Of a stretch of 64,000 bases of DNA, positions 6,401-43,471 are shown piece after piece. The number at the start of each line of letters is the position of its first letter. Positions within the stretch are counted from its first letter, which is position 1. The translations under genes were made by a program, and so were the position numbers. The DNA lies in the NCBI GenBank assembly GCA_037447655.1, contig JBBHKE010003116.1, forward strand, positions 92,501 through 156,500, in the 5' to 3' direction. Source of the stretch: Zygnema cylindricum (taxonomy: Eukaryota; Streptophyta; Zygnematophyceae; Zygnematales; Zygnemataceae). The notes under the pieces are model-generated. The model did no database searches, was not told where the DNA came from, and was given only the letters and a program-made list of their open reading frames with translations.

Positions 6401-9400
6401 ACTTGCTCCGACTGAGAGATACCATGGAGCGATATTTTCAACCGTACGAAAACCAGGTCCACTATTACCCGCGGCAACTGCACTCGGAATACCGGCAATA
6501 GCCGCATTAAAAGTTCCTTGGTCAATACCGGAATCAAAAGGTTTATCTGGGGCACCTCCTCCCAAGGAAATTGAAATAACATCGACCTTATCGACAATTG
6601 CTTGATTTATTGCAGCGAGAATGTCGGAATCATAACATCCATTATCTTCGGAACCGGCCGAAGTCCAGCAGACCTGCATGTAAAGCATGTATACAATGGA
6701 GAAGGATTTGCATAAGCGAAACAAAGTAACAAAAGTGCAAATAAGCGTAAGAAAAAAAAACTACGTGTTTTGCAAGTACATTGGATGTAGGAGGTTGAGC
6801 AGATGCTATAAAGTCATTCCGTTTGGCTATTTTTACCAAATCGTACATACACCGTCTAGTATGTCTCGTAATGCATTCTTCTGTGGGCTCTGTTGATCAC
6901 ACGAGTGTTTTTGGAAAAAATTGCCTAACATCCCAATCGCCAGGAGTTGACGACATTGACCTTCTAAGAATAGCGTTTCATTTGAGGCAAGCTGTAATGA
7001 ATACGGAAAGGATTTTATTACAAAAAAACGGGTTTTCCATAGCTGAACCACGAAGTCTTGGATCAATTTCTGTTGTTTCATTTCATGATTCATTACACAA
7101 CACTTTAATCTTGATAAAGGCACAAACTAGCCCGCTTGTACATAAAATTCTTGGCATCAAATAGCGTAGAGAGAATTGTATTTTTATACTATTAGAACAT
7201 CATCAGCAATCCGTGAACTAGTCACCATCATCAAACATACTTTTGAACTCGGCAACAAAAGAAAAAGCGTCATTCTTTTGGCATGGTAGACCACCGTCAA
7301 CATCCGTACTTCTTAATTTGAGAACAAAAATCAAAAAACAAGATATCCCCACTAAGAACAAGGACCGGATGTTTAGATTTCAAACCTTGTAGACGGATAT
7401 TTGTGCCCCATATGCCACCCCTTTTGCCGTTCCAATATTCACACTTCCAATACTTGCGTTGAAAACTTTTGACCCGGCTGCAGTAGAAGCTGTATGGGTG
7501 CCATGGCCTTCAGAATCTCGTGCAGAACGGTAATCTGAAGATGAAATCAGGCCGTCCGCTTCAAAACCCGCGAGGTAAATCTTAGCAGCTACAACCTTTC
7601 TGGATGAGAGGGATGGCAATACAAGAACATGAGTTTGACATTGCATTTTGGTTACATTCAGCTTCACATGATTGTACACTTTAGCATACTATAAATGTGA
7701 TGTGACACATGATAGAGTATGACACCGTAAAAATAACTTTAAAGTCTACCAAAATTAACAACATACCGAGCATCAATATGACCCTATAGTGAAATTGAAT
7801 TAAAGATAATGGGCTGATTAGAATATCCTCTCGATATTGGCCAAGCTATTAAAATACGTCAAGCATCGGTGAACAAATCCTCCAAAGACGTACGTCTAAG
7901 TGGAAAATAACTTACTTGTTACATTTGATGCCACTCCCTATACAATTGCCAATAAAAGTTGAAGGTGGGGGGGGGGTACCCATTGTCGTCGAAGCTCAAA
8001 TTTTCGGGCCAAATACCTGTAAAAACCAGTAGATCAAAGGACAACTGGTGGCACCTCAATTGCACGATAAACTATTGGTCAACAATTGACAAATAATTGA
8101 CACTTTAGTTTGTTTCCGAGAATGCGGTTATGCACTTTCACATGCACATTAATTAGTTTGGATAATTACAGTGTTCATAAGTCTTAGTATGATCCACCTA
8201 ATTCCCCGAAAAAACTAACACAAATTTGTCGACGGTAAACAAAACTGTTCTTTTACCAACATCCCTATGCTCCACACAAATAAATGATGGCTAATATAAT
8301 GCTTGAAGAATTAGTATACGAATAATGGTCAATGATCGCGGCCACCAGCAAAACGTCATTCGAAATTAGTGTGACCTCCATCATACAACATCGGCAATGA
8401 TCATAACATCATTCCACTTTTTATTCATTGCAGTCCACTCTAATAGCACTAAGTAACTAATGGTCAAGAACGTGCATACTGCAGAATCTATTATTTGGGC
8501 CATCTTACAGCATTTTTAATTGTTTTATGATACGAATTTGTTTTGTTATATAATGATGTGGTACACATGGTGCAAAAAAATTTCCGTACTTACCCGTATC
8601 TATCATTCCGACCACCATTCCACTACCATTTTTCAGAGTATAAAAACCTGGAGGAACGTTATTGAAGGGATCCTCCAGACCTAAAAAGGACGGACTATAT
8701 GTGGTGCGCAGAATCCTTCTCTTGTCCAGTTCTACGGATACTATTCCCGCCATTCCTGCAAAAACAAAGAACCACAGCCTTTCAGTAATTTTTGTTAACT
8801 ATGCTTTATTTTTCAGCATCTTGAAAATGGAAATTAGAAGAGAAAGTGTCTCTTAGTAACTCTTAGAGCCTGAATTATCCAAAGAATAGTAAATTTCACA
8901 CTATTTGTAATGCCAATCGTAATGCGAACTGTACCTCTGAGTCCTGTAGCTTGCTCCTTAGAGAGGACGGCCGAAAAACCGTCCATGGAGTGTGTGTAGC
9001 TGTAGAGTTTGGATTTTGGTCTACTCACCGAAAGAAAAAAAAAAAGACAAAAAAATGACCAATGATATTCCATTAAATAATTTAGAATTAAAATGTCTCT
9101 AAACAATTCGGATGCACGGTTTTTGATTTCTGGTAATGTTACAATGCCTATGCCGAAATTTTGATGTTGGGTGTTAGGATATCTTTGGTGCAGAAGATCG
9201 ACTGACCATCTGATCTTAAATCTCCATTTTTCAATGGGAAACATTGCATAAGAGAACCCCTGCTTTCAACCTAAAAAATATACGTATGTAACAGAGTGGT
9301 GGGTAATTACTCATTGAAACAAGCAAAAAAGCTTAAGAGAATTTTGCAAAAGATTTACAAGCTGATTTCCAATGTCAAATTGTTGCAATGTCATTGCCGT

Positions 9401-13603: not shown

Positions 13604-14526
13604 TTGAAAAACACATTAAAACAAGAAAACGCAACGCGGTGGAATTCTTTGCTCCGAATGCTTAAGAGTATTTACGATACATTCAATGAGATAAGACCAA
13701 TCGCACAAGCAATAAATAAATTGTTACTTTTTGCTTGTATCGATAAGACTCACCTTACTGAACTTATACGATTTTTGGAAAAGTTCCAAGAAGCGACCCT
13801 AACATTGGAGAAATTCAAAGAACCAACTTTACATTTGGTTTCGTTTGAACTATCGTCTCTTCATAACCATTGTAAGATAAGAAAAACATCTTACAATGAC
13901 GGTGAAAAATAATGTCCCGCCGATTCCATCAAATTGCAAAAAGTATAAACAACTTTTTGTGAAATTTGCATTACCAAAATGGGGCCTTCATGAGTATCAT
14001 ATTGTCGCGACTCTCTTAGATCTCCGACAAAAACAAAAGCTTGAAATAATTGGGGTATCTAAAACCGAAATTGAAAGCGCAAGGGTCAAACTTCAAGAAC
14101 TCGCAAACGACCTCGGTGATGACGTTGATTTCGGTAGTCCTCAACGTATCACAAAAAAAACGAAAAACATCGCAAAGTAAAGACAATTTCCACATTTTTT
14201 TTGGTGAGAGCGATGAGCAAAATGAGGTTCTTATCACCACCGACAAAAAAACGCTCGTTAACGACGAAATGAAACCTTATTTTGGTTTAAAATTAACCAA
14301 CGACGAAAGATTAAACTTTGACATACTTGAATGGTGGAAAAAAAAATGTACGTGCGAAAGATGGAGGATTTCCTATTCTAGCCGGTGTTGCTGTATCTAT
14401 TCTAGCTATTCCGACTTCTAACTCCATGTCCGAATGCAATTTTTCGGATGCCGGGAACACGATAACAAAGAAGAGGAGCTCACTAGCTGCTTCAATTGTT
14501 AGTGATTTTTTGTGTGTTAGATCCAA
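13604..14526 (+). pseudogene. hAT transposase remnant, C-terminal part
   Basis: Three overlapping open stretches in different frames resemble the second half of a hAT transposase. They contain a TRWNS motif near the start, an EWW motif before the dimerisation region, and a degraded hATC dimerisation segment (ILAIPTSNSMSE, then RSSLAASIVSDFL). At least two frameshifts separate the pieces, so it cannot be functional. The matching upstream part lies 2 kb downstream (16591-16985), so the element is rearranged. Confidence 0.75.
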
Positions 14527-15173
14527 CCGACATCTTTTAAATGCAAATTTTTTTATTTTGTTTTGTTTTCTAATTATTGCTATTTATTTAGTATTAGTTA
14601 TCATGTTTTTTTTTTCTTTGAATTTTTTGTTGTATTTCACAATTCTTCTAGTGTTATTTTGTTTTTTTTTTTTTAAACCAAAGTGTTTATTTTTATCAAA
14701 TTACCAAAGCGTCGTATGTATACCAAATTTAGATTTATAGATTTTTGTGTAGTTTTAAGTTTGAGGTTGAGAATTTGTACAATAGAGTCGAAAATAGAAC
14801 GAGGTTGTTATTTGTTTATTTCTGTATTTGATACTACAAAATATTTTGTTTTTTTTGCTCATCACAATGTGTTTTTTGTCATTTGACTTTCTATGTGAAA
14901 ACTATTATTTTTTTTTAAACATACATAATTGAAAATTTTCCTTTTTTGCATAATTCATAACATAGTATCGTAGTCGAAAGAAAAAACGTCCGAAAATTGT
15001 AGCGAAAAAATTAGATTTGCGAGAGAATAAACATTAATGTAAGGGTTTAAGCATTAATATAAGAGTTACACGCAAATTTAGGAACAAATCCTTTGAAGGA
15101 GGTGACTGTCGAGGAATTTTTTTTTCCTAAAGGGAGATTGCAAAAAGACAAAATAGTAAAAAGAAGAGGTACA

Positions 15174-15429
15174 CGAGCTGTTTTTTTGAAAAGGGAGATG
15201 TACCACTACACCACTCATTGTTATTAGTATTAATAAGTCGTTACTACTTATAGCCGAAAATCACAAAATATAGCTAACAACATTATTTAAATACGTGGAC
15301 TATAACCTGTCACGTCTCCTTGCATTAAATAGTATTATGAATCATAATTTTCCCTTTACACTACACCTCGAATCGTAATTAGCGCTATTAACGCTAATTC
15401 CGTCACCACGAAATTTGACCCAAAAACCT
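15174..15429. repeat. Direct repeat, copy 1
   Basis: About 255 bp, nearly identical to 16999-17254; both start CGAGCTGTTTTTTTG. Each copy includes the TACACCTCGAATCGTAATTAGCG end of a MITE. The two copies may bracket a duplicated or inserted piece of the hAT element. Confidence 0.85.
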
Positions 15430-15654
15430 AAAAACCCTAAAAAAACCCTAAAAAACCCTAAAAAACCCTGAAAAACCCTGAAACACCCTTAAAAATCCAT
15501 CGCAGTGTACTTCTATTATTAACGCTAATTGAACAAAAAAACCTAATTAGAATAATGGAAAAAATAGAATTATGGATTGTATTTCGGGTTTATTTTTTTG
15601 AAAAAAGGGCACCAAATTAGCGTTATATACTCTGATAGCGATTGACCTAAAGTA
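15362..15654. mobile_element. MITE with TACACC ends, containing telomere-like repeats
   Basis: The left end reads TACACCTCGAATCGTAATTAG. The right end is a decayed inverse (GATAGCGATTGACC). The interior at 15426-15490 holds a run of CCCTAAAAA-type units. Its right half matches 46700-46842. Confidence 0.65.
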
Positions 15655-19362: not shown

Positions 19363-21763
19363 CGTTGGTACATGTGTAGTGACAAAACGTCACGGGGTAC
19401 AATATTGCGTAACAAATGGGCGATATTATAGATGGTAGACATGTTAGCATATCATTGTTCACGTAATCTAGCATGCGTTAGATTGTCATTGGTCGGGAGG
19501 TTGGCAGAATCATTCCGGATAGAATCTTTCTGTACATCCGTAGGGTTAGCAATATTGAAGCAAGTCTATCTAAGAGCGTTGTTCCATTACGCGGTCTCAG
19601 TAAACGTCAAAAATTTGTTTACTGAAGCGAACGTTCCATTGTGTCGGCTCAGTAACCGACATTTTATTTGCGTGGCACACTTTGATTTGTCCACGTAATA
19701 GATGAATACGATTCTGATAATCTTCAAGAATCTCTGACAACATATTGTGACCACATATTTGTACCAAGGAAGGTAAAAGTGACTTGTACGACGCATTGAA
19801 TAAAATCTGTACGGGTGGTCAAAATTTAAGATTTGTTTAAGCGTACGAAAATGTCAGAATGGTTAGTGGATGGCAACAGAAGTGTGAAACAATATCCTCC
19901 GTCAAAGATTTTGTTGCGGCTTTCGGTGGCCTCGCATCCTCCCTGAAGGAAGGCACATGTCATATGCGATGTGTACCCACCTGGTCGTGCGGTCGTCATG
20001 GATATTTGTTCACTTTTCCACGAGGCACGATGTTATTCGTTCGGGCGCTTAGAATTGACCTACTCCGGGCCACTTGTTGCGAACTGAAAGTGTCTGACGA
20101 TGGCGTATCCGATTATGCATCAGACGGTCCAAGTTTACGCCCATAAACGTGGAGAATCAAATCCCTCATTCAGTAGGCTTGTATTTCTGACTTTTTTTTT
20201 TTTATTTTGGTTTATTTTGGTACGGCACTGTACGAAACAGTACGACTTTCAGTAAACACCGACAATTTTCCCCTAATGGAACCTCACCCTAAGGGTGCCT
20301 TTTAAAGAAACATTGTAAGATAGCCAAACTAGCTACACCGCGAATTCGTTATTAGCGTCAAGGTTTTTTTTTTCCACTTAAAACATCTTTTCTCCGTACG
20401 CACTTGTCGGATTGTGGATATGTCGGTTGCGATTGAAAGATAACATTCTCAGCTTCTGATTGGCGGTCTAAAATTGAAAATCCAACAAGTGTGTACGGAG
20501 AAAATATGTATGAAGTGGCGAAAAAAACCTTGACGCTAATAACGATTCGCGGTGTACATCACAATTCAACTGCCCAATGCGTGGTTCAAACATTGCACTA
20601 GAGGAAAAGAATAAAGGCTTTACTAACAATAAATTCCTAGCTTGTGACATGATCAGAAAGAAACATTCCTGTAAAGTCCTCCTTAATTGCTCAACTCCAC
20701 TGTTACATTGCATTTCTACAACTCTTTATTCTATCTTGTTTTGTTAATTTGAATTGTTTTTGACTTCTATGGTCTGAGCAGTGTCTATTTTACTAGGTTT
20801 TTGCTGTGGTTAGCTTTTGTGATTTTTATCATATTTTCTACAATGCTTGAACTTGAATTTCAAATATACTGGGAGTATAGACTAAAAAAGGCTTCAACTT
20901 GTCTTTTCTATGGAAGCACATTTTTTTTTTTGGAATAAACAACAAACCTTTTATCGTTGCATTGAGCAAAGTGACCAATGACAAAAAAAAAAAAATGAAA
21001 CAAATTTCAACAGCAATGCATGTTTCCTTCTAAATCGAGTTTGCATGCAAGACGACAAAACTCTGTAGCTAAATCAACAATTCTTGTCGTTTCTTCCACA
21101 GAGCCGAAAAACTGAATAACTGGGCCTTTGACTTTTTTTTTTTGGAATGCTTACCGTCATTAATTTCGTAAGCTTTTTTACATCCGAGTTCTTAAAACAA
21201 TCGAACATAACCTTCTTCGGGAACAAGATTTATTTCAAAGTACGAGCATTCACTTGTTTTCATAATATGGGTAGTACAAAAGAACAAAAACAACAATTTT
21301 TACTATTTCAATATTTCAGATGCTTTTGGTATTACAACAGGGAATCAAGTCAAAATTGAGAGGGCCCCTTGGCCCTTCTCCTTCTACCAATAACGTTTAT
21401 AACTTTGTCTAAATGAATGTAGTAAAAAATATTAACAGAACGCTATTAAAAACCTAGATGCGTAGTGTCGTTAAAATACAACCTCTCAAGATTTTCAACT
21501 TTAAACGCTAACACACTTCTTTTTTGCATAGTCTACCCAATATTAACAAAAATAATGAATATCAATATAATAAATATTTAGCCTATGACCTTATTATATA
21601 CACAGTAAGAATTTTGTTATTGGATAACAAAGAAGAGGATGACCGCTGTTCACTGCCATTTTCTCATTCTTTCTCCCTCTATTCTCTTGATTCTGTTCAA
21701 TGAACTGATGAGTTCTTGTTACCAATAATGCCACCTCTTCTTTTATTAATTTTGTTAGATTCT
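19363..21763. other. Intergenic, no gene recognised apart from one MITE
   Basis: Apart from the MITE at 20334-20556 I see no gene, RNA or repeat I can name. The last part (21360-21763) should hold the 3' untranslated region of the LysM protease, which ends at 21764. Confidence 0.6.
20334..20556. mobile_element. 223-bp MITE with TACACCG ends
   Basis: The left end is TACACCGCGAATTCGTTATT and the right end AATAACGATTCGCGGTGTA. Inverted similarity extends inward (CACTTAAAACATCTTTTCTCC against GGAGAAAATATG). Same subfamily as 25688-25908 and 48861-49080. Confidence 0.85.
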
Positions 21764-24700
21764 CTAAATGCACTTCCCCTTGATGCATTTAAACACACAC
21801 CCCGCAAAGTTTTTCTGCCAGTTGGCTGATGTTCCCCCGAGAGTCGTCGCCGATGCGCTGCACCAATCTTTGCACGCATTCGTGTAAATTGTGCATTTAT
21901 CTGAAGGCTTCGGCAGGGGATAAGGAAATGGTATCCACTGCGGAAAAAGACATGGAGTTGTGCATTGCGGGGGCACATTCGTGGTTCCGATTTTCACGAG
22001 ACGAGGAAGTCCCGCCCGATTCACGCAAGCTCTTTTGCAGATATTGTCGTATGCGGTCACCGGAAGGGCGAAGTTGCATTTCGCATCGCATTCGGAGGTG
22101 TACCAAATCCCATTATCTCCAAAAACCTGTTTGGCAGCAGGTTTACATCCGCAACTTCGACCGAGCTTTCTCGCGCATGGAACGCGCAATATTTTCCCTG
22201 CCGTTAAGGATTCTCCAGCACTTAACTGATTCACTGCCATAATTGCGTTGATAGATGCATTTTCCCCACAACTGCCGCGCATGATTTCCGCAATGTCGGC
22301 GAGAGTGTCGTTCTTCTGGACGGTGTAAGGGAGGAGACTGGCGCCCAGATGCTCTTCAGTGAGACCGTCCTCCAAACAAACCAGCTGTCCGACTCTCCAG
22401 TATGGGCCAAAGCACTGCAGAAGACTGCACGTGTGTGAGGAAACATGCCGCGGACAGCTGGCAGTCGCCAGTGATTCGCCAGAGCAAAAAAAGAAAAGAA
22501 ATGGGAGAGGTTAGGGGGAGGCTCGGCACTCACCCTGACTCCGGGGTTCATGCGGACGAAGGCGTCGGCCGAAAGGCGGGCAGAGGTCCACAGAGAGGCG
22601 CAGGAGTCGCCGTGTTTCACGCGATGCCAACGGACGCACGTGTGAAGAGAGACAACCTCCGGAAGGTGCTGCACCGTCGACACCGACAAAGGAAGATGAG
22701 GTCAGCCGTCAGATGTCAGCTTGACTGAATCATGTGAGGCTTGGTGCGCTGTGGACAAAAGTGCGTATCCCGCAAACTGTGCGTTCATAGTGGAAATTTA
22801 GTGCGCTTTTTAATGCAGAGCGGACGAAAATTTCCAGATACGGGATAAAAAATATCCGCACAGATTGCAGAAAGCCGCTGGACGTTCTTCATAGGATTGG
22901 AGCGTATGAAATTATGATTGAGAATAATGAGATGTAAAAATTGGATTTCCAAACAACAAGGTAGATAACGTAAACAACTGGACTTAGAGGTGAACTATAC
23001 TATGACATGCTACGAAAAACATTGACACAGAATAGATTATAGTAGCGGATGGACATTGAAGTACGACTTTGGATATTCGATGTTGCACATTGGACATTCT
23101 GGATTTCATGTCAAAAATAGAAAACTTCAATTCTTAGGAATGAATTAGCCTTTATCCACAAAAGAATTGATTATGATCACGATGATGGTTGCGCTAAGTG
23201 AAATTCAATGTTGAAAACCAGATTGAGCACATTACGTTAGACAAACTACAAGATTCGATGAAAACTTACAGTGGCTGTGCATACACTAAGCTTTTCCGGA
23301 AGGTTCTTCTTGCAGCTCAGGCCCGGATTCCATCTGCAAGGTGAAAGGGAAAATGAGACCACAGAGGATTTTGGAGACATTACAAATTATTAAGCAAATG
23401 ACTGCTATTTTAAACAAGCACACTGATTACTTTCCCACAAACAGTGTTTACCGGAGAAGGTTCTCTTCTGAAATTTGGAATTTCTCGATGATATCGCCAC
23501 ACGTGTCACCCTGTCGAACATCAAATAGTTGAGTACAATTCATGGAAGATGCCGAGGACAGATGTCCCTTTTCGAGACAAAGCTCAGTCCCCGGGATAAG
23601 ATTGTCGCAATTGATGTGGGAATTAACTGTTGAGAAATTCTCAAGTGAAACTCCTCTTTTAGTAGCAATGGAGCTGCAAGTATCATCATTTCCCACAATG
23701 TAGTTTTTGCGACATCCGACAGTTGAGGAGCCGTCACCTATGACAACCGCAATACCTGAAAATAGCGAATGGAAGCCCAATCAGAACACATTTCAGCATT
23801 GGTGATTTTTTTGAATATTTCGTCTAAAGTTGAAGTTAAAAAGGTGAATAAAGGGGAGTGAGAGATGCACACAAGTGAACAAATGACCAGAATTTAAATA
23901 AAATGGAGTTTGAGTTGGCTTCGAGAGTACCTGGCTCGAGACGACGAGAACAGTCCATCCAGATATTCCAACTCTGAAAATCTGAAACCGAAATATTCCA
24001 ATGCTTCGCAATTTTCTGCAAAAAATCAAACACAGGAAGAAAAAATATTAAGGATCATCCACAAAAGAAGGTGTGTACGCTTTCATGGCAATAATTTTGG
24101 TCATGGCAAGAAAATCCGAACTACATGATAGACATGATTCAATTTGGGAGCTATCAACTTCTATCACAAAATTATGTAGTGAGAGGGCTATTAATGACTT
24201 AAGAGGATTGGAATGCCCGACCACTGATGACATTCATGTCATTTGTTTATTTACTTTACTCTAGTTTGAATATAAACTTGAACTCACCTCGCAAGAGTCT
24301 CCAGCCACAATTCTGTGGGTTTGAGAGCCTTCCTTGAAACCGCCCACACACGTTGGAGCTCCGTCACCTCGAGCACCAATCACATGGCCCTGAAAGACGA
24401 GGAAACGGAGAATTTTATAAACCCTAGATCTCGAAGCAGCTCATTCACTACCACAAGGTCCTTTCCTTACGTTAAAATATCCTTTCCCCACTCAAACAGA
24501 CAAAACCAGAAAATACCAAATTTCCAGTAACATGAATTGTAATTTTCCCACATCACAGCTGAACAGTTTCTACTAGAAAACTGTTTCCTTCCATAAAAAA
24601 TTCCTTCCATGGAGTAACATGAATTTACTCCGAAAGGCTCTCGCTCTCTCTCTCTCTTTCCTCTCTCATCTTCTGACAGCATAAACCGCGGCTCACCTCG

Positions 24701-26345
24701 TCGCACGTGCATGCGTAGTTTCCGTCGGGAGCATTTTCGCAGACTCCGGCGCCGCAAGGGTTGGGATTCTGCGCACACGCGTCCGCCCTCGCGCACTTCG
24801 GCGGACTCGTCTGTCGGTTCTCCACAAATCCCGGAGGACACATGCAGCGCGCCTCCCTGCCCTCCACGCGACACGTGCCCGCACCACACGGGTTGGCGGG
24901 GCCGCGGCAGGGGGAGGAGGGAGAGAGAGCCACCGGGAAGAGGCCCTGCAGGCTGGAGAGGGCAGAGGGAAGGCGATATCAGAATGCAAAACCTCGTTTC
25001 TTATGTTCTTTGATTTTCCGGGTGGAGGAGGTAAAGAAACGCGAGTAGAAATGGGAATTGGGTGGAGACGAGGGAAGGGAGGGAGGCTTGCCTGGTGATG
25101 CCGCAGGAGCCCGGTCCCTCGGAGGCCTTGAGGTAGAGGTAGCCGTTGTCGCCCCACTGAGGGCCCCACGAGTTCTTGACGATCCAGTAGAGGCCGTTGG
25201 TGGGACACGTGGCATAGCCCACTATGAGCACCACATGGTTCACCGCGCCGCTACACGGCCCGGAAAAGAACCCTCCATGGTACGCCTGAAGCCAGGAGGG
25301 CGGGAAACTTTGAATTAGAACGCGGTGGGGAAAATGTTGTACGGCAAAGGTAATGTTAGTTGTCTCGTAGTTCATAAAAATCAATGGAATGTTTTCGGTG
25401 TAAAATTCTTCTCAGTTTTTTTGTTTTAAGTTTAAAGGAAGTGCTATTTTTTATGCCCTGCAATTTTTCACTATGTATATTCGTTTTCCCCTTGTTCTCC
25501 TTCCACCAATAGTTACAACTTTCAACAGTAAATTGGACATGTTCTATTTTTGAGAAAGGATAAAACAAAAATCAGGATGTGCAGTTTTACGTCTTTGTAT
25601 TCATATACAAGATAGTTTTCCGTGCTTGGCAATTTTGTTGCCATATACTACATTCAGTTACTGAACCAGCTGTGCCACGTGGGAAAGTATACCGCAAATA
25701 GTTATTAGTGTTAAAGTTATTATTTGCCACTTAAAACATCTCTTCTTCGTGCACACCTGTCGGATTGTAATCCGATGGTTGCTATTGGAAGGTAAGATTT
25801 TCACCTTCCTATAGGCAGTCTCCGATTGGCAATCCGACAAGTGTGCACAGAAAAAGGATTTTTTAAGTGGCGAAATAAACTTTAACATTCATAACTAATA
25901 ACACGGTAGCTTCTAAATTTAGAATATTTGAGAATATTTATTCGAAGATGCTGGGTTGTAAGATGTTGAAGTTTTGAATTCTTAAGGCTGTCTAAGAGTT
26001 CAATGCATGCACATTTATGGGCAGACTAATTATCATCGCAACACCAGAAAAAGCAGGGTAGCAGGGAGGGAGAGAGGCCCACCTGCAGGTTCTCGGCGTC
26101 CATGAAGGCGATGACGGGGCCCATGGCGACCGCCTTCTTCATCGCGAGAACACTCCTCGCAGGCACCGCCTCCCAGCCCGCCAGCTGGCACACCCACGGA
26201 CAGCCACGTCAGCCACCAGACACACGGAAGAGAAACACACCATGACAGCAACAAGGGAAAATCTTGTAATTAAAATATTTTGATTAACTAAATAGAAAAA
26301 CATGGAGACAACTGATGGGAAGAAAGAGAGCGAGCGAGCGAGAGA

Positions 26346-26419
<74 letters not shown>

Positions 26420-26425
26420 AGGAGA

Positions 26426-26456
<31 letters not shown>

Positions 26457-27424
26457 TAGGAGACAGGGAGAGAGGGAGAGAGAAAAAGAGAGAAAAAGAC
26501 AAATTGAGAAGAATAAATGAGAGAAAAAAGGGGAAAAAATAGAAAAGGAGATAGGGGAAGAGAGAGAGAGAGAGGGAGAGAGAGCGAGAGAGAGAGAGAG
26601 CGAGAGCGCCGTACCGCCAGCCCCGGCTGCGGGTGGCGTCTGGCTGCCTGGCAGGTGGCGTTGGCGGCCGTGTAGGGGTAGGCGCGGCGGCTGGAGAGGC
26701 CACCTGCCGCATACACATAGGCCAGAGCCGTCTCGGGCCAGCCGCCCTGGCAGCCGCCGCCCGCGCTCCCGCAGTCGCAGATTTCCTGCTCGGACCCCTC
26801 CCGGAGCCCTCCCGCGCCCCCCCCTGCGATGCGCGCCGCCATCGTCACGGCATCGGCCGCCGCCACCGCCCAGCAGCTGCCGCACTGCACCCGCCACGTC
26901 AGCACCGGGACACGTCAGCAACAGGCCACGTCAGCACCGGGCCACGTCAGCAACAGGCCACGTCAGCACTGGGACACGTCAGCACCATGTGACGTTATCT
27001 GGCAGCCGCAGAAAACGACAAAGGCCAGGGTGGCGGAGCGACTCACGGCTCCCTGGTCGTGGACGGACGTCCTTGCGGCGGTCTCCCTCCAGTCCACCCA
27101 CTCGGGAACTGCCACGTGGCTCTCCCAGCGGAAGCTGGCGTTCACATTGGCACGTGTGGGAGCTGACGTCAGCGGCGGCGCCACTAGGCCGTACGCCCAG
27201 CGAGGCTCCGCCAGAAGCTTCCGAGCACCTTCCTGGGCGCCGCGGAACCGCTGCTCGGGACCCGGAGTCGCGGAGTCGGAGGCTCGGAGGAGGAGGGACC
27301 AGAGGGGGAGGGGGGAGAGGGAGGGGCCATGACGCTCCTTTCTGTGGAGCTCAAACGCTGTGGGGGAGGCCGCGGCCACGTGGACCCACAAGAGGGAGAA
27401 GACCAACAGAAGCCACCGACCCAT
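21764..27424 (-). CDS. Papain-like cysteine protease fused to EGF-like and LysM domains
   Basis: Exons on the minus strand: 27424-27047, 26884-26615, 26184-26083, 25285-25092, 24952-24697, 24389-24288, 24015-23931, 23755-23452, 23333-23270, 22668-22534, 22414-21764. Every phase closes, giving 846 residues. Order: signal peptide (about 1-19); a pro-region without a clear ERFNIN motif; C1A domain with Gln124, Cys130 (CGSCW), His267 (VNHVV) and Asn288 (KNSWG), ending GITSLQGLFPV as in papain-family enzymes; EGF-like cysteines at about 327-400; LysM modules at about 424-470, 477-524, 536-583, 596-645 and 658-705; a cysteine-rich tail to 846. Intron 4 uses a GC donor. LysM binds chitin or peptidoglycan glycans, so I infer a secreted, glycan-tethered protease. 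Two adjacent genes is the alternative, but no stop falls between protease and LysM exons. Exons 1-5 are GC-rich and 6-9 AT-rich. Confidence 0.88.
25688..25908. mobile_element. MITE in an intron of the LysM protease
   Basis: Ends TATACCGCAAATAGTTATTAG and TAACTAATAACACGGTA are decayed forms of the TACACCG family. The interior shares the CACTTAAAACATCTCTTCTTC and GTGTGCACAG arms with 20334-20556. It lies in the third intron (25286-26082). Confidence 0.7.
26331..26458. repeat. GA/CT microsatellite in intron 2 of the LysM protease
   Basis: About 125 bp of nearly uninterrupted GA dinucleotides. Further GA-rich sequence runs to 26608, up against the exon 2 donor. The long Ser-Leu and Arg-Glu frames here come only from this repeat. 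Confidence 0.95.
26895..26990 (-). repeat. Six 16-bp repeats with TGACGTG cores in intron 1 of the LysM protease
   Basis: CACGTCAGCA recurs at 26895, 26911, 26927, 26943, 26959 and 26975, exactly every 16 bp. On the gene's strand each unit reads TGCTGACGTG, an ACGT-core/TGACG word of the kind bound by plant bZIP factors. The array fills most of the 162-bp first intron, just before the acceptor of the catalytic-cysteine exon. Confidence 0.85.
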
Positions 27425-34499: not shown

Positions 34500-35111
34500 A
34501 GGGAAGAAAAATGCACTTTTGGTCACAAAGGTGACAGAAGACACCGAGGACGAGTCCTCTGAGGAGGATGGGGAGCTTCTTCTTGACGAGAGTTTGGAGG
34601 AAAAGGAGGTCCCTCGAAAACAGAAGTGTGCCCTTGAAGCAATTCGGGAAGCTCCACAGGAAGGATGGATCATCGACTCAGTTTGCATCCATGCATATGT
34701 GTCGTGACAAGGACCTCTTCACTAAGCTAAGGAAAATCCCTACTGTAGAAATAGAGTATGGGGATGGGATCGTGGTTACTACAAATCTAATAGGATCACT
34801 AGATCTAAAAGTCTTAGTGGAGGGTAGGACTTCTATACTCACTTTCTCAGATGTGCTCTATATTCCTCACCTGAGTAAAAATCGCGTCTCTACATTTGTT
34901 TTAGATGACAAAGAATTTGATACATTCACTAGAAAGGGAATCTTTACAGCTAAGTACGGGGATGAGGTTTACTTCACTGCAGATAAGGGTAGCCAAGGAA
35001 TAATTAGGCTTGACCTGAGTAATGAAAAGAAGAATGCTTATTATGTTGGTGTCCCAAAGTTCATGATTTGGCATAAGCGGTTGGGTCATGTGCATTTTGA
35101 TAGGTTGAGGG
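34500..35111 (+). pseudogene. Copia A protease and pre-integrase remnant
   Basis: Reads through a mutated protease active site (WIIDSVC where WIxDSGA is expected) and the FSDVLYIPHL region to the GAG-pre-integrase HKRLGHVH motif. It is cut off by the insertion of Copia B at 35112. Confidence 0.8.
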
Positions 35112-35878
35112 TGTTGTTCTGAGACAACAGCTGGTATTGAAGATGAAGAAGAAGCAGCAGTAGTAGTCATTGTAGAACAAAACAAGAGAGGAAGCTTCCA
35201 CAAATACCAATGGCAAAATAGCAATTTTGACGGACAATAACTTTTAGCACAAGAACACAATAGACTTACAAATCTACCACACTGTAGATAGCATACAAAA
35301 GAACACACACAATAAATTACAGTTAATTTTGCTCACAAATATGTAAGATATTCAGAGGTGAATTTTCATAAAACTGAGTGTACAGTTTTTCATGTCATTT
35401 GTTCCTAATGTATCAAAATTTACTAAGTCCTACTTCTATACACTGAACCTACACTAAGCTGTACGGAGGCATTCCAGCCGTACATCTAACATTCTAACAC
35501 AACAAAATTTTGTTCTACCAAATATTTACACCGAAGTTCCAACAACGTAAAGTGATAGTGATATAGTCATGCCTTGTCAGTATTTGTTGGTGGCGGTTGT
35601 CAGCTGTCCGATTAGAGGATTTAACACCATAGATGTGACGTCACGAAGTACCGTGGTCCGGCCGAATTTCCGTACTTCCACGGAGGACATACTCACGCAT
35701 TTCTCTTAAGTGACGACGCGTGTCCCAATATGAATGAACCGTGAACTCCCAACTTCACTGTCACACTAATTTTGGTAAGTACTGAACCGAACTCAACCAA
35801 AAATGACTTAAGTCCTGAACAACTCTCTCTCCCTCACAGCTGAGGCATAGAGAGGACTAAAGCTTTCTAAAAACAACA
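35112..35878 (-). repeat. 3' LTR of Copia B
   Basis: A 767-bp LTR. The purine tract (AGGGGAG on the minus strand, about 35879-35885) lies just before it in the element's direction. Confidence 0.9.
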
Positions 35879-35936
35879 CTCCCCTAAAGCTTTAGACTTT
35901 GCAAGTCACTCAGTCCATATGCCTCTCTACAGAACT

Positions 35937-37918
35937 TCAATTTGGGTGCAGGTAAGGGTTCGTCATCATATCAGCCACCATTTGCTCATCCTTTAAATAA
36001 CTCAACTTCAAAACTTTTCCCATCACCTTTTCTTTTACAAAATGTAGCTTGATATCAATGTGCTTACTCTTAAAGTGATGACTGGGATTAGATGCAATAG
36101 CAATTGCTGCTTCATTGTCACACCATACTATATGTGGTCTAGATTGCATAAAAAGAAGCTCTTGGAGAAGACCCTTTACCCAAAGTAACGCCTTAACTGC
36201 TGAGCTGGCAACCATGTACTCAGCCTCCATGGTAGATTGAGCTGTTACCTTCTGATGTTTGCTGCTCCAGCAGCAAGTTCCACTTCCGATCTTCAGAATC
36301 TATCCAGTGGTGGAGCGTCGGCTCGGCATATCTCCGTAGCTCGCATCGCTCCATGTATGAATTTTGACTTCCTCTCGACCGAGAGAGAGTCTAAGATTTT
36401 GAGTTCCTGCAAGATAGCGAAGAACTCTCTTTGTTGCCTCATAGTCCGACTTCCTCGGATTTTGCAGGCTTCGGCTAAAGGTTCCAATTGCGGCTGCGAT
36501 TTTCGGCTGAGTACAGTTCATGAAATAGATGAGGCTTCTGACAATCTGTCTGTAAGGAATGGAGGACATAGAATCTGCCTCCCCTGGATCCAAAAAATCA
36601 TCAACCAAAACACCACCATCCGTTTTCGTACCCTCGATTTTCTGCCTGAAATCCATAGGGGTGGCACTCCCCTTTGCTTTTGACATACCAAACTTTTCTA
36701 GCATGTTCCAGATTGCTTTTTTCTGAGTTAGATAAATAATTCTTTTTTTCCTATCTCTTTCTACTTGAATTCGTATAATATACTTAGCCTCACCCAAGTC
36801 CTTCATTTCAAACCGAGAATTGAGATCTGATTTTATTTTATTAATTTCATTCATAGATATGCTAATCAACAGCAAATCATCTACATATACTACCGCATAA
36901 ATCACTTTATCCTCACCTTGCATGACATAGAATGAGAGATCTAAACTGATCTTGGTAAAGCCAAGATTGGTTAAAAACTCATCTAACTTGTGGTTCCATT
37001 GTCTTGGAGCCTGTTTCAAACCATACAAGAACTTCAATAGTTTAAAGACCAGATTTTCTTTCCCTATTTTCTGCATACATCTCTGGCTGCTTCATATAAA
37101 TTACTTTTTCCAAATCACCATGCAAGAAAGCCGTCTTAACGTCCATCTGATGCAATTCCATATCCTCTATTGCAGTAAGAGAGAACAAAACTCTAACAGT
37201 AAGAAAGTGAACCACAGGAGAGAAGGTCTCTTCATAATCAATTCCCTCCTTCTAACTAAATCCCTTAACGACCAGTCTAGCTTTATATCTCTCAATTGTA
37301 TTATCAGGATTCAATTTTAATTTGAAGACCCACTTACAACCGTTAGCTTTCCGGTTCGGTGGGAGCACCACAAGTTCCCAAGTTTGGGCTTCCATGATTG
37401 ACTTTATCTCATCATTTCCAGCCGAGATCCAATGATCCTTTTTCAGGAACGGAAAGGTTCTTGAATAGTAAGCGGCTCCCCTGTGCTTGCAGAAAAAACA
37501 ATCTCCACTCGGTCGCCTCGAAGACAGCTGCTTTCCCTTCTTCCCCCCGGAAAATCTGACGCGAGAATTGTAGTCCCCTATTGTTCCGCAAAGGGCGTGT
37601 AGTGATAAGAGCAACTTCGAAAGTAGGATCTGACGACCCAGAGACATTCAAAAGTGAGGTAGAGGAAGTAGAAGGAGATGGAGTAAAAGGTACTTGCTGA
37701 AGAATGATATACTCTTGTATTTTCTCATTCCTTTCAGCTGCATCCATACTAAAAACATCCACCGATTGACTCTCTTCTTTAATCTGAATATTTGTGGCTG
37801 TATGAAGGCATCCTCTCTGAGGGTTATACACTCTAAAGCCAACAGGTTCATCATCATAGCCTAAGAAAACACCAGGTAAAGATTTTGGACTTAGCTTCCA
37901 AATAGGAAGATTATCCAA
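35937..37918 (-). pseudogene. Copia B reverse transcriptase and RNase H
   Basis: Integrase C-terminus (PGVFLGYD), then reverse transcriptase with YGLKQAPRQW and YVDDLL, then RNase H (MEAEYMVASS, KHIDIKLHFV, DMMTNP). Split into three frames by shifts and stops. Confidence 0.9.
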
Positions 37919-38041
37919 GATAAAGCATTTGCTACCGAAGACTCTAAAATGACCAACATTTGGTTTTCTGCCTGTCTATACTTAATAAGGTGTTTTACCC
38001 TTCACAGCTCGGGGTTCTACTAAATTTTTGATGAAGTAAGC

Positions 38042-38851
38042 TTAATGAAAAGCTTTCCCCCAAAACTTTGGATCCACACCTTTATCGACCATCATAGAGC
38101 GAGCACATTCAGTCAAAGTTTGATTAAGTCTCTCGGCCACACCATTTTGTTCCGGTGTGTACGGAGCAGTAAATTTATGAAATATGCCATTTTCTTTCAA
38201 GAAATCAGCAAAGGCATGGGATACATACTCTCCACCATTATCCGTCTGCAAAGCAAGAATAGATTTGGCGTGAAGTTTCTCCGCCCAGATTTTGTAGTGT
38301 TTAAAGTGAGTGAAGACTTCGCTCTTCTCCTTCATGAAGTATAAGCCACTGTACCGAGAGTAGTTGTTTGTAAAGGTGACAAAATAGCGGCTGCCACCAA
38401 GAGAGAGAACTTTCGAAGGGCCGAAGACATTAGAGTGAATAATACCAAGGAGATTTGTGGCTCGATGATCAGAAACTTGTGGGAGGGGAAGCTTGTGAAG
38501 CTTTCCGAGAGCACAACCATCACAAACATGAGACTCTTTTTGACCGAGCTTGACTCCCTCTATAACATCATTCTCTATCATCTTAGTAAGTCTCTCATGA
38601 TGCACATGACGAAGTCTTTTATGCCACAAAACATTATCAAAGAGGACACTCGAGTAAGCAGAATCACTTTTATTAGCCAGGTCCACGCGGTACAAAATGT
38701 TTGGGCCTCTAGTTCCTACTAGAGCTACTCTTCCATCCTTGCTCACTTTTTTCTTGGCATTTTTTTGGAGAACCTTAAAGCCTTTGCTTTCAGCTACAAA
38801 GGTAGAAAACGAAATTTTCTTAAACTTTGGAACATACAAGACATCGTACAA
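38042..38851 (-). pseudogene. Copia B integrase
   Basis: A long open stretch with the HHCC zinc-binding region (WHKRLRHVHH, CDGCALGK) and the catalytic core (DNGGEY, TPEQNGVAER). It ends at a stop after the FWGKAFH segment, before the C-terminal domain. Confidence 0.9.
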
Positions 38852-38949
38852 AGTTCTCTTAACAACCTTTCATCTTTCACACAATCCAGATCGTTGTTTC
38901 CTTTGGTATTTGATTCAACAGCATAGCCACAAGCATAAAAGATCTGACG

Positions 38950-39881
38950 TTAAGGAATAGAAGACATCTCCTTAAACCAACACTTGTTCCACCACATGTG
39001 TGAAGAGCTGCCGGAATCCATTATCCATCCGAGGTCCTTTTCTCCTCCCATCATGTCGAGTTTGGCAAGAGCAAAGAACTCTTTGTCATCAGTTTTCGGA
39101 AAACTGGTCACATCAGGTTTTTCTTCCTCGATCTTCTTCTTCTTCAATTCCGTAACCTGCGCTGAAAACACAACAATTTTATTTCGGAGGTCTTTGATGA
39201 ATAGAAGGTCCGCGATGTCTCCATCCTTTTCGGAAGATACCTTTTTTAAGAGCTTTTATATACAAAGGACAAGCCCTAAAGGAGTGACCATCAGTATAGC
39301 AATAAACACATTTGTGAAACTGGGGATTAAACTGATTCTCTTGATATGTACTTTCTCTCTGAAATTGAGCCGTGAAGGCTACAGGTGGTTTCCCAGATCC
39401 TAAAACTGTTTGAGTGGATTCTTCTGAAAAGATAAACTCTATAGCTGTTTGCAAATTCCAAAGAGGTTTGGACAATTTTTTCATTTCATCTGAGGCTCCT
39501 TTATATTCACAGTAGCCCCTTTAAGAGAATCATGGCTTGATGATAAGGGGAGAAAGTCCCCCTTAAACATGTATTTTGTGACAATTACATTCGAAACCGA
39601 TTAGTGTATTCCACCATGCAACCGCCTGTATACTTATACTCATAGATCTGACCAGCAATTATAATCTCATGCTGGTCACTAGCTCTAACATAAGAAGATT
39701 TCAAAGTATCCCACAAATCTGATGCCTTTGAAATATATGTCATATGCAATTGTTTTGATATCATAAGCTTCACTAAATGCAAAGCTTGGTCATTTTTGTG
39801 ATCAAAGCTGGCATCAGATTCTTCCAGGGATCCATTTAATACATCAATAAGTTTCACTTGCCTGAAGTAAGACTTAACCAA
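38950..39881 (-). pseudogene. Copia B gag and protease
   Basis: The gag N-terminal part (39881-39585) is followed, after a frame break, by a zinc knuckle of CX2CX4HX4C form (CVYCYTDGHSFRAC). A protease with the intact DSGSSSHM active site follows (39171-38950). Confidence 0.85.
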
Positions 39882-39930
39882 ATCTACCCAATACAGATAT
39901 TCACATCATTAAAGAATGGAATTCGTGAAA

Positions 39931-39944
39931 GCGGGCCCGTGACC
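39931..39944 (-). other. Primer-binding site of Copia B
   Basis: GGTCACGGGCCCGC on the minus strand differs at three positions, all transitions, from the Copia A site GGTTATGGGCCCAC. It is probably a mutated version of the same initiator-tRNA anticodon-arm site. Confidence 0.6.
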
Positions 39945-40713
39945 TGTTGTTCTAAGAAAACTGTTGCTACTGAATATGAAGAAGAAGCAGGAGTAGTAGT
40001 CATTGTAGAACAAAACAAGAGAGGAAGCTTCCACAAATACCAATGGCAAAAACAACAACTTTGACAAACAATAACTTTCAACAGAAGAACACAATATTCC
40101 TACAAATCTACCACATTGTAGATATCATACAAAGGAACACACACATAAAATTTCACTTTATTCTGCTCACGGATGTATGAGATATTCAGAGGTGAATTTA
40201 CATAAAACTGAGTGTACAGTTTTTCATATAATTTGTTCCTAATGAATAAAAATTTACTAAGTCCTACTTCTATACACTGAACCTACACTAAGCTGTACGG
40301 AGGCATTCCAGCCGTACATCTAACATTCTAACACAACAAAATTTTGTTCTACCAAATATTTACACCGAAGTTCCGACAACGTAAAGTGATAGTGATCTAG
40401 TCATGCCTTGTCAGTATTTGTTGGTGGCGGCTGTCAGCTGTCCGATTGGAGGATTTGGCACCATAGATGTGACGTCACGAAGTACCGTGGTCCCGCCGAA
40501 TTTCCGTACGTCCACGGCGGACATACTTAGGCATTTCTCTCAAGTGACGACTTGTGTCCCAAGTGTGAATGAACCGTGAACTCCCAACTTCACTGTCACA
40601 CTAATTTTGGTAAGTACTGAACTGAACTCAACCAAAAATGACTTAAGTTCTTAAAAACTCTCTCTCCCTCATAGTTGAGGCATAGAGAGGACTAAATCTT
40701 TCTAAAAACAACA
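39945..40713 (-). repeat. 5' LTR of Copia B
   Basis: A 769-bp LTR. In the element's direction it is followed by the primer-binding site at 39944-39931. Confidence 0.9.
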
Positions 40714-41547
40714 GAGGGAAATGGAAAAGCTTGGTGTAGTGGAAGGCATTCAGTTCAGTGGAAATAAAATGGTGGATGATTGTAGTGGCTATGCCCAAGG
40801 AAAGGCTCACAGACTTCTTTTTCCTAAAGCCGCCACATAAAGAGGAGAGAAGGTACTTGATTTAATCCACATAGATATTTGGGGACCAGCAAGGGTACCC
40901 TCAGTTGGGGGGAAGAGGTATATGTTGACAATTACTCATTACTGGTCCAGATATTCTAGAGTATACTTCCTAAAAACCGAGTTTGAAACACCAACTTACT
41001 TCAAAGAATATAAAGCTTACAGTGAGGAGTTGCATGGAACCCCCATTAAAATAATAAGGAGTGATAACAGGGGAGAATATACCTCTAACTAGTTTGAGGA
41101 ATACTTCAGAGATGAGGGACTTCAGCACCAGAAATCTGTACCACATAATCCAGAGCAAAATGGAGTAGCTAAGAAGTTAAACCGAACACTAGGAGATAGT
41201 AAAAGCAGTATGTTGGCTGACAAGAAAATAGGAAAGAGATTTTGGGCAGAAGCTATGAATTGTGCCAACTATATTAAGAATAGAGTCCTTACCTCGGCAG
41301 TCAAAGGTATGACACCTTATGAGAGATGGGTTGGAAGGAAACCGGATATCTCTCACCTTAAAGTATTTGGTAGCCAAGTTTATAGTCTAGATACGGATAA
41401 GAAAAATTGGAAACTTCATGCTAAGGGAAAACCCGGATATTTTGTAGGATATGATAAGGATGTCAAAGGATATAGAGTCTATGACTTAGCCAAGCAAGAT
41501 ATCATTGATCAAAAACCTAGTTGTCATGGATGGAGGAAAGTCAATTG
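40714..41547 (+). pseudogene. Copia A integrase remnant
   Basis: It resumes right after Copia B, starting with the duplicated GAGGG. The integrase core shows DIWGPA, SDNRGEY and NPEQNGVA motifs with in-frame stops (for example near 40838 and 41090), then a stop at 41547. Confidence 0.85.
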
Positions 41548-41702
41548 ACCCCTTCTAATATACTAAAAAAATAAGAATCAGGTTTGAGTCCGAAAGTGAG
41601 GAGAACTCTGTTTTTCCCGAAAGGGATATGATTGAGACACTGATTGCAGATTCACGGGAGATCTAAGATACAAGAAAGCTAGCGGATACCTCACATACTT
41701 CT

Positions 41703-43471
41703 ATGGATTTCGAGGAGACACAAGTGGAGGAATTGGACCCGACCTCCTTGAATACGAGAGACGATGAGACAATAAGGAGAAACCCAATACTTCCCTCTAT
41801 TCCAGCTTCAAAGTTTGAGGGAGGAAGGAGCAGCAAAAGGATACAAGAGAAACAAGCTGCTCATAAGGTAACTAAGCAATCTCGTCTTGATGAGCCTCAA
41901 TCATACTTGGAGGCAGTGAACAGCCTAGAAAAAGACAAATGGATTAGAGCCATATATGATGAGATGGTTTCCATCATGGAAGCAAATACTTGGGAGCTAG
42001 CTGATTGTCCTCCAGATAGAAAACATATTGGCTGTAAATGGGTAATTAAGTTAAAGTTGAACCCATAAAATACCATTGAAAGATATAAGGCTGGCTTGGT
42101 AGCAAAGGGGTTCACCCAAATGGAGGCGATTGACTATGAGGAGACGTTTGCTCCAGTTGTTCAGTTCCCGTCAGTAAAGATTCTCCTCAATTTAGCAACA
42201 GCGGAAAACATAGAGATACATCAGATGGACATTAAGACTGCCTTCCTCAATGGTGAGTTAGAGGAAAAAATCTTAATGTGGCAACCGTAAGGGTTTGTGG
42301 AGAATTGGGAAGAGAGCAAAGTCTGCAGGCTAATAAAGTCCTTATATGGACTTAAGCAGGCTCCCCGACAGTGGAATAAGAAACAAGATGAGTTTCTTAC
42401 TTGTCTGGGATATATCCGGATGTGCTCAAACCATTCTATTTATATGTTTGAAGATGAGGATGGTGTGATTTTTATTGCAATTTATGTGGATGATCTGCTG
42501 GTGTTGAGTAAGTCTTTGGAAAACATCAATAAGTTGAAGAAAGATCTTAGAAGCATATTGGACATGAATGATTTAGGGGAGGCAAGATATATTTTGGGAA
42601 TTCAGATGGAAAGAGATAGGGGGAAAAGGATCATTAGAATCACTCAGAAATTAGCAAAAGGAAATATGTTTGAGAAATTCCAGATGGAGAAAGCAAACAG
42701 TTGTACCACTCCCATGGACTTGAAAAAAGTAAGTGATGGGAGTGTAGAAGGTGGAGTGATAATCTTAGATGATCAGTTGAATCCAGACAAGATAGAGTTT
42801 ATGAAGTCTATTTCTTATAGACAGGTAGTAGGAAGTTTGACCTACTTTATCAACTGTACAAGGCCGAACATAGCAGCAGCAGTAGGAGTCCTCAGTAGGA
42901 GTCTTAACAATCCTAGGAAGAGAGACTGGGAGGCAGCTAAGAGAGTCATGAGATACCTAGTGGGAACCAGAGAGTTATGGTTGCATTTGGGAGGGGAGCA
43001 CACTGATATCACTACTTTGAGTGATGCCAGTTAAGGGGATGCATCTATGAGAAGATGCACTTCTGGATATGTATTGTATATGGGAGAATATGCTTGTTGT
43101 TCGAGTAGTAAGCAACAAAAGGTGGTTGCTCAATCTACTATGGAGGCTGAGTATATGGCCTCTTGTTCTGCTATGAAAGAATTAATGCGGGTCAAATCTT
43201 TGTTGCAAAAATTAGGGTATATGAAGGAGGGAGTGCATGAAGTTTTTTGTGATAATCAGGTTGCCATTGCAATTGCAGCCAATCGAAAACATCATTTCAA
43301 AGCTAAACATATGGACATAAGATTGAGCTTTGTGAGGGAGAAAGTTGAAAACAAAATTGTAAATCTTGTGTATAGATCAGATGAAAAAATGGTGGCTGAC
43401 ATGATGACCAAACCTGTGCCCTCTACCAAGTTAAAATATTGCAGAGAAAGATGTGGACTAAAAGAAAAATA
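41703..43471 (+). pseudogene. Copia A reverse transcriptase and RNase H remnant
   Basis: Motifs in order: WELADCPPDRK, MDIKTAFLNGEL, SLYGLKQAPRQW, YVDDLL, then the RNase H region (AEYMASCSA, KHMDIR, DMMTKP). In-frame stops at about 42066, 42288 and 43032 break it into four pieces. Confidence 0.9.

What the first reader, a model, noticed from the sequence alone, without database searches (positions are those of the whole stretch)
21764..27424. A cysteine protease fused to EGF-like and five LysM modules
Eleven exons join in phase into one 846-residue secreted protein: a C1A protease with all catalytic residues, a cysteine-rich EGF-like region, about five LysM modules and a Cys-rich tail. Known: LysM modules bind chitin and peptidoglycan glycans and usually occur on receptors or chitinases in plants. 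I recall LysM-bearing proteases and chitinases in volvocine algae, but know of no described plant family with this order. Inference: a wall-tethered protease acting at microbial or host glycans, possibly in defence or symbiosis.
Basis: partly seen in the sequence, partly recalled or inferred. Interest (0 to 1): 0.88.

Follow-up and report, generated by a model that had tools for sequence, protein, structure and literature searches.

The report
Algal cysteine protease with glycan-binding modules
A gene, most likely from an alga of the group closest to land plants, encodes a papain-like protease joined to two EGF-like modules, five chitin-type sugar-binding (LysM) modules and a Kazal-like tail; other algae of that group carry the same joined protein, so the fusion is real and conserved, but its job is untested.

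Summary
Confirmed, with additions. Eleven minus-strand exons (27424-21764) splice in frame into an 846-residue protein: hydrophobic N-terminus, complete C1A catalytic set, two six-cysteine EGF modules, five LysM modules, Cys-rich tail. Three searches found 16 proteins with both Peptidase_C1 and LysM: 3 Mesotaenium, 9 Closterium (both Zygnematophyceae), 1 unnamed Trinity transcript, 3 unnamed contigs. Thirteen align over the whole order.

C1A/Peptidase_C1 + LysM is already in print (PMC2728734, PMC6362431), so this is a new variant of a known kind. Best explanation: a secreted protease held on GlcNAc-containing glycans by its LysM array, for defence or wall surveillance more likely than digestion. 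Secretion, activity, ligand and role are inferred.

The parts
21764..27424 (-). Whole gene, 11 exons, 846 codons plus stop
   Evidence: homology over the whole order
27365..27424 (-). Hydrophobic N-terminus (aa 1-20), probable signal peptide
   Evidence: hydropathy peak 1.77 at residue 5, coordinates; no signal-peptide predictor was available
24950..27109 (-). C1A papain-type peptidase (aa 106-315, exons 1-5), catalytic Q124 (27055-27053), C130 (26875-26873), H267 (25237-25235), N288 (25174-25172)
   Evidence: Pfam PF00112 E 2.6e-52; residues; coordinates
24793..24909 (-). EGF-like module 1 (aa 330-368), six cysteines
   Evidence: PF00008; 12 of 12 EGF cysteines kept in 12 of 12 full-length relatives
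24348..24777 (-). EGF-like module 2 (aa 374-414), spans the exon 5/6 join
23739..24317 (-). LysM 1 (aa 425-468)
   Evidence: five LysM stretches; boundaries by alignment
23571..23708 (-). LysM 2 (aa 479-524)
   Evidence: PDB match to chitinase-A LysM
23279..23531 (-). LysM 3 (aa 538-582)
22370..22635 (-). LysM 4 (aa 597-645)
22175..22333 (-). LysM 5 (aa 658-710)
22037..22153 (-). Kazal-like module (aa 718-756), degenerate here: two family cysteines are F728 and D753
   Evidence: family profile; losses; the window protein alone gives no Kazal match
21767..22036 (-). Cys-rich C-terminal end (aa 757-846), no known domain
21742..21747 (-). AATAAA, possible polyadenylation signal 3' of the stop
   Evidence: a hexamer match only

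Best explanation
A nuclear gene, most likely of a zygnematophyte alga, encodes a secreted papain-type (C1A) endopeptidase whose C-terminal array of five LysM modules holds it on GlcNAc-containing glycans, so that proteolysis is concentrated on one surface. The two EGF modules act as a disulfide-rigid spacer; the Kazal-like and Cys-rich end is structural or protein-binding. Shown by sequence: joined order, complete catalytic set, five LysMs, two EGF modules, Kazal relation of the family's tail, conservation in other zygnematophytes. Inferred: secretion (hydrophobic N-terminus; 51 cysteines, 40 of them kept in 12 of 12 relatives), activity, ligand (chitin-type GlcNAc) and role. First choice of role: defence or surveillance against chitin-walled parasites (about 45%); second: remodelling of the alga's own matrix (about 35%). 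The confidence below is for the tethered secreted protease, not for the role.
For: Complete gene model and Pfam domains. 16 proteins with C1 and LysM, 13 aligning over the whole order. Catalytic set complete in 16 of 18 aligned rows. Sixteen LysM-region cysteines kept in 12 of 12 relatives. Best PDB matches of the LysM region are chitinase-A LysMs (7.9e-6 and 5.1e-4). A Closterium relative carries a chitin-binding CBM_14 domain beside C1A (P0007, E 1e-8). Model of P0001 shows a papain fold and five beta-alpha-alpha-beta units.
Against: No binding, activity, localisation or expression data. Two Closterium members lack the catalytic Cys, so catalysis is not required in every member. No I29 propeptide was seen, so the usual way of keeping the enzyme latent is not evident. 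The window copy has lost cysteine 170 of the protease domain, kept in 13 of 13 relatives, and two of the Kazal-like tail, which could mean relaxed constraint. Pfam sees five LysM stretches in only 7 of the 13 relatives (3 or 4 in the others).
Confidence: 0.72

Rival explanations
1. Matrix-remodelling enzyme: the LysMs bind the alga's own GlcNAc-bearing glycoproteins and the protease processes the matrix in division, wounding or conjugation.
For: Recalled precedent: a Volvox cysteine protease with chitin-binding repeats induced by the sex inducer and by wounding (Amon, Haas and Sumper 1998; only the title seen, in a reference list). Proteases and a 'cysteine protease, putative' were found in the Penium secretome (PMC6027541, passages).
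Against: LysM and CBM_14 relatives point to chitin, which I recall as absent from zygnematophyte walls; not tested.
Confidence: 0.35
2. Mainly a lectin or decoy: the LysM array is the selected part and catalysis is dispensable, at least in some lineages.
For: P0004 and P0006 (clusters of 3 and 14 member sequences) have Ser at the catalytic Cys.
Against: 16 of 18 rows, the window among them, keep the whole catalytic set.
Confidence: 0.15
3. The Kazal-like tail is a working inhibitor that regulates this or another protease.
For: The profile of 14 tails finds Kazal inhibitors first in the PDB (rhodniin 7.3e-6, ovomucoid 3.6e-5).
Against: The window copy lacks two cysteines; the Cys II-III loop is one residue short in 9 of the 10 rows that fit the relaxed pattern; Pro, Ala, Ser or Thr stand in most rows where the P1 residue would be (place recalled). 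A structural role is likelier.
Confidence: 0.12
4. Artefact: two neighbouring genes joined by the splice model.
For: GC drops from 0.63-0.77 in exons 1-5 to 0.42-0.57 in exons 6-9.
Against: 13 relatives share the order, one a transcript; the break lies inside EGF module 2, aligned in 18 of 18 rows.
Confidence: 0.02

Closest known systems
Chlamydomonas Peptidase_C1 + LysM architecture (PMC2728734, 2009; passages read)
   Same: Papain-family peptidase and LysM in one chain
   Different: The passages mention no EGF, no five-LysM array and no Kazal-like tail; sequences not compared here
C1A + LysM lectin architecture of non-vascular Archaeplastida (PMC6362431, 2019; passages read)
   Same: Peptidase C1A and LysM; reported as not retained in vascular plants
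   Different: The species list that I saw has no zygnematophyte; the order described here is not described in the passages
Volvox wound- and pheromone-induced cysteine protease with chitin-binding repeats (Amon et al. 1998; recalled, title seen only)
   Same: Cysteine protease plus repeated chitin-binding modules, secreted
   Different: As recalled: extensin-like linker and three repeats; no EGF pair and no Kazal-like end
RD21-type plant C1A proteases with a granulin domain (recalled)
   Same: C1A followed by a disulfide-rich animal-like module
   Different: Granulin rather than EGF; no LysM; have an I29 propeptide
HTRA1 (3tjq, matched by the tail profile at 3.7e-4)
   Same: A secreted protease chain that also holds a Kazal-like module
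   Different: Serine protease with other partner modules; no LysM (recalled)

Membership tests
C1A papain-like peptidase | Papain-family domain | tested here: met
   PF00112 E 2.6e-52; papain-like folds first for the model of P0001
C1A papain-like peptidase | Catalytic Gln, Cys, His, Asn | tested here: met
   Q124, C130, H267, N288 in the window; 16 of 18 rows complete
C1A papain-like peptidase | I29 inhibitor propeptide (usual in the cathepsin-L-like group, recalled) | tested here: not met
   No PF08246 in 17 of 17 proteins at E up to 1; strict ERFNIN and GNFD patterns in 0 of 18 rows; several relatives have short or partial N-termini
C1A papain-like peptidase | Proteolytic activity | not testable with these tools
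   Needs expressed protein
LysM proteins, chitin-binding type | LysM modules | tested here: met
   Five stretches, E 4.2e-41; nearest solved relatives chitinase-A LysMs
LysM proteins, chitin-binding type | Binding of chitin oligomers | not testable with these tools
   Needs a binding assay
Kazal-type module (family tail) | Kazal profile match | tested here: met
   Kazal_2 in 9 and Kazal_1 in 5 of 14 tail pieces at E up to 1, best 3.5e-5 and above cut-off; as full-length proteins 4 of 17 match Kazal_2, each below cut-off
Kazal-type module (window copy) | Six cysteines in Kazal spacing | tested here: not met
   Two cysteines replaced (F728, D753); no relaxed-pattern match; no Kazal match
Chlamydomonas/Volvox C1A + LysM proteins | Common descent of the fusion | not tested
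   No chlorophyte member was among the matches, which score only proteins of 0.55-1.75 times the query length

The most novel reading that the evidence does not exclude
Zygnematophyceae, the sister group of land plants, run a family of extracellular 'aimed' proteases: one C1A core followed by EGF-type modules, without the usual I29 propeptide, to which different recognition modules are attached (five chitin-type LysMs with a Kazal-like end; CBM14; or leucine-rich repeats plus LysM). Some members have traded the catalytic cysteine for serine and may act as binding decoys or regulators. It would be a lineage-specific secreted defence layer that works without receptor kinases.
Probability: 0.22. 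Interest if true: 0.75.

Novelty: new variant of a known kind. Interest (0 to 1): 0.5.

Why it matters
[quoted passage not shown] How such algae deal with chitin-walled parasites, beside LysM receptor kinases, is largely open. A conserved, apparently secreted protease with five chitin-type LysMs offers a concrete effector to test, and the Cys-to-Ser Closterium copies are a natural control for catalysis. It also shows that C1A-LysM fusions, seen in two earlier surveys that did not sample this class as far as the passages show, are present and diversified in it.

Tried and rejected
Two joined genes: rejected, since 13 relatives share the order and the GC break lies inside EGF module 2. Recent fusion as cause of the GC break: rejected for the same reason; a 5' GC bias is likelier, though exon 10 (0.64) does not fit a smooth gradient. 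Further copies in the window: tblastn of the window protein and 17 relatives gave nothing outside 21-28 kb at E 1e-3. Viral carriers: a scan of viral contigs gave 7 loci, matching only the N-terminal and C1A part (query residues 6-323 at most); not pursued. Rfam and tRNA scans of the window: no match. NCBIfam on five relatives: only matches far below the cut-offs. A working Kazal inhibitor: judged unlikely. Paralogues in the window's own genome: not obtained, machine busy in 13 of 13 tries. Fold of the window's own tail: not obtained. The model of P0001 (12 sequences, mean pLDDT 61.3; most tail blocks 41-67) does not test the Kazal fold. Searches scored only the 7996 candidates sharing most words, so absence elsewhere is weak evidence; one search scored all its 6009 candidates. 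Supplementary tables of the papers could not be read.
Full report
The observation. On the minus strand eleven exons between 27424 and 21764 join in frame into one protein of 846 residues with a single terminal stop. Nine introns are GT-AG and intron 4 is GC-AG. Exon 11 must start at 22414; an acceptor ten bases upstream breaks the frame. Pfam finds Peptidase_C1 at 106-315 (E 2.6e-52), five LysM stretches (4.2e-41) and two EGF stretches (1.2e-5), each family above its cut-off. The N-terminus is hydrophobic, and a simple hydropathy scan shows no comparable second stretch and no hydrophobic C-terminus. No signal-peptide predictor was at hand.

It is not splicing by eye. Three protein searches gave 16 different proteins with both Peptidase_C1 and LysM: six among the 22 matches, one more among the 23, nine more among the 14 (two of those 14, without a C1 domain, are fungal). 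Three are from Mesotaenium endlicherianum, nine from Closterium, one from a EukProt Trinity transcript (complete ORF) of a species not named in the output, three from unnamed Logan contigs. Mesotaenium and Closterium are Zygnematophyceae. Thirteen align over the whole order (P0001-P0006, P0023, P0029-P0034); P0023 runs on into a Hop2-like protein (TBPIP domain) and its tail is not comparable. Pfam taken alone sees less: five LysM stretches in 7 of these 13 and three or four in the rest, and an EGF-type match at E up to 1 in 9 of 13. The alignment supports the full set: 12 of 12 EGF cysteines and 16 of 16 LysM-region cysteines of the window are kept in 12 of 12 relatives (P0023 left out). P0035, P0036 and P0037 are shorter or more divergent.

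Exon joins. In an alignment of 18 rows (window, the 16, and P0007) all ten junctions fall at aligned places; those after residues 462 and 585 adjoin gapped linkers. The exon 5/6 join lies inside EGF module 2. tblastn of P0001 on the raw window hits nine of eleven exons without any model of mine, exon 6 weakly (E 0.027, but 3.5e-5 with P0029); exons 7 and 9 are not hit.

Catalysis. Q124, C130, H267 and N288 are present, and the set is complete in 16 of 18 rows. In P0004 and P0006 (Closterium; clusters of 3 and 14 sequences) the catalytic Cys is Ser. These two form one pair (100/100) in a tree of the C1A-EGF part; the window pairs with P0003 with middling support (81/93), and the root is only a midpoint. 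No I29 propeptide was found in 17 of 17 proteins scanned (P0035 was not scanned), and strict ERFNIN and GNFD patterns are in 0 of 18 rows. Several relatives have short or partial N-termini, so this is not final. A block around GLxAPxL..GPSxADINxTxFRxxSV precedes the mature domain. How the enzyme is kept latent is open.

The tail. A profile of 14 tails (13 relatives and the window) finds in the PDB rhodniin (7.3e-6), ovomucoid (3.6e-5), leech tryptase inhibitor (1.4e-4) and HTRA1 (3.7e-4) near the top of 71 matches at E up to 10, of which 60 are shown. Of the 14 pieces 9 match Kazal_2 and 5 Kazal_1 at E up to 1; the best, from P0029, is above the cut-off. As full-length proteins, 4 of 17 match Kazal_2, each below the cut-off, and the window gives no match. 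A relaxed Kazal spacing fits 10 of 18 rows, not the window, against 153 of 26000 shuffled tails; the strict pattern, recalled from PROSITE, fits only P0031. A hint comes from losses: P0029, P0032 and P0033 lack both cysteines at window positions 718 and 743, and the window lacks those at 728 and 753 (P0023 also lacks 753, but its tail is chimeric). Read as Kazal I+V and III+VI these would be true bridge partners (bridges I-V, II-IV, III-VI recalled); by my arithmetic two such hits have a chance of about 0.04. Caution: cysteine 756 is close by and could be VI instead, and the window has also lost cysteine 170 of the protease domain, so this is suggestive only. Pro, Ala, Ser or Thr stand in most rows at the place of the usual P1 residue, so I think the module is structural. 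The AlphaFold model of P0001 has low confidence there and does not decide it.

The LysM array. The best PDB matches are LysM modules of chitinase A, 4pxv/5ylg at 7.9e-6 and 5bum at 5.1e-4 (from a fern and a horsetail, as I recall), ahead of fungal Ecp6 (0.026) and bacterial peptidoglycan enzymes (0.07 and above). The model of P0001 shows five beta-alpha-alpha-beta units. I therefore expect a chitin-like GlcNAc ligand. The EGF pair matches fibrillin-1 best (3.2e-9).

The wider set. P0007 (Closterium, partial) has a CBM_14 domain before C1A (1e-8) and a cysteine block like an EGF module after it, by eye. P0037 (Closterium, partial) has leucine-rich repeats, C1A, EGF and LysM; P0036 has C1A, EGF and LysM. 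These three are the long branches of the tree, and fused gene models cannot be excluded. If true, one protease core is combined with different recognition modules.

Structure. For P0001 with 12 sequences, mean pLDDT is 61.3 and pTM 0.57; the C1A part matches ficin, dionain and ginger protease first. This confirms the fold class only.

Setting. Of the 43 ORFs of 120 aa or more, 20 were scanned: pieces of a subtilase on the minus strand (I9 8837-9244, S8 6203-6724, fn3_6 1474-1977), a PLAC8 ORF (52191-52601), retrotransposon fragments with RVT_2, rve and gag_pre-integrs (34568-43031) and a hAT fragment (14318-14737). A report lists Inhibitor_I9 and fn3_6, often with Peptidase_S8, among the domains exclusive to Zygnematophyceae plus land plants in its sample (PMC11096116, passages). 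With the homologue list this makes a zygnematophyte source likely; the species is not known to me. Exons 1-5 are GC-rich (0.63-0.77), exons 6-9 are not (0.42-0.57), exon 10 is 0.64 and exon 11 0.51.

What is known. Peptidase_C1 + LysM is reported for Chlamydomonas (PMC2728734, passages). C1A + LysM is reported as not retained in vascular plants, in a survey whose species list, as I saw it, has no zygnematophyte (PMC6362431, passages). A papain-family survey has no occurrence of LysM or EGF in its main text (PMC10380794). The Zygnema genome paper has no occurrence of 'protease' or 'chitin' in its main text. LysM + Zygnematophyceae + cysteine protease and LysM + cysteine protease + Chara braunii gave no paper. 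The eight other searches gave listings, four of them cut at 20 rows, in which I saw no description of this order. A Volvox cysteine protease with chitin-binding repeats, induced by wounding and the sex inducer, is the nearest functional precedent, recalled; I saw only its title.

How it most likely works. A secreted papain-type protease is concentrated on GlcNAc-rich surfaces by five LysMs, with the EGF pair as spacer. Shown by sequence: order, active site, modules, conservation. Inferred: secretion, activity, ligand, role. Defence against chitin-walled parasites is my first choice (about 45%), own-matrix remodelling second (about 35%); the serine-bearing copies suggest that binding alone can be worth keeping.

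Verdict. Observation confirmed, interpretation partly supported: a new variant of a known kind, interesting for its lineage, its conservation and its unsuspected Kazal-like end, not because the pairing of C1A and LysM is new.

Noticed in passing
P0004 and P0006 (Closterium), site of window C130: Catalytic Cys replaced by Ser in two relatives, with the rest of the catalytic set kept.
   Followed up: partly
P0007 and P0037 (Closterium): C1A domains joined to CBM_14 (P0007) or to leucine-rich repeats and LysM (P0037); both records are partial.
   Followed up: partly
window 1474-9244, minus strand: Pieces of a subtilase gene (fn3_6, S8, I9 in ORFs at 1474-1977, 6203-6724, 8837-9244): a second secreted-type protease gene about 12 kb from this one.
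   Followed up: no
window 52191-52601, plus strand: ORF with a PLAC8 domain (E 2.2e-14).
   Followed up: no
window 34568-43031 and 14318-14737: Retrotransposon fragments (RVT_2, rve, gag_pre-integrs) on both strands and a hAT transposase fragment.
   Followed up: no
window 25699-25897: Nested inverted repeats in intron 3 (arms of 45 and 20 nt), like a small inverted-repeat (MITE-like) insertion.
   Followed up: no
window 15422-15495: Tandem array of a telomere-like 10-mer, AAAACCCTAA, 7.4 copies.
   Followed up: no
PMC6027541, table passages: The Penium secretome lists a 'cysteine protease, putative', a 'serine protease inhibitor' with a scallop best match and a 'peritrophin-1': possible pieces of this family or its CBM14 relative; not tested.
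   Followed up: no
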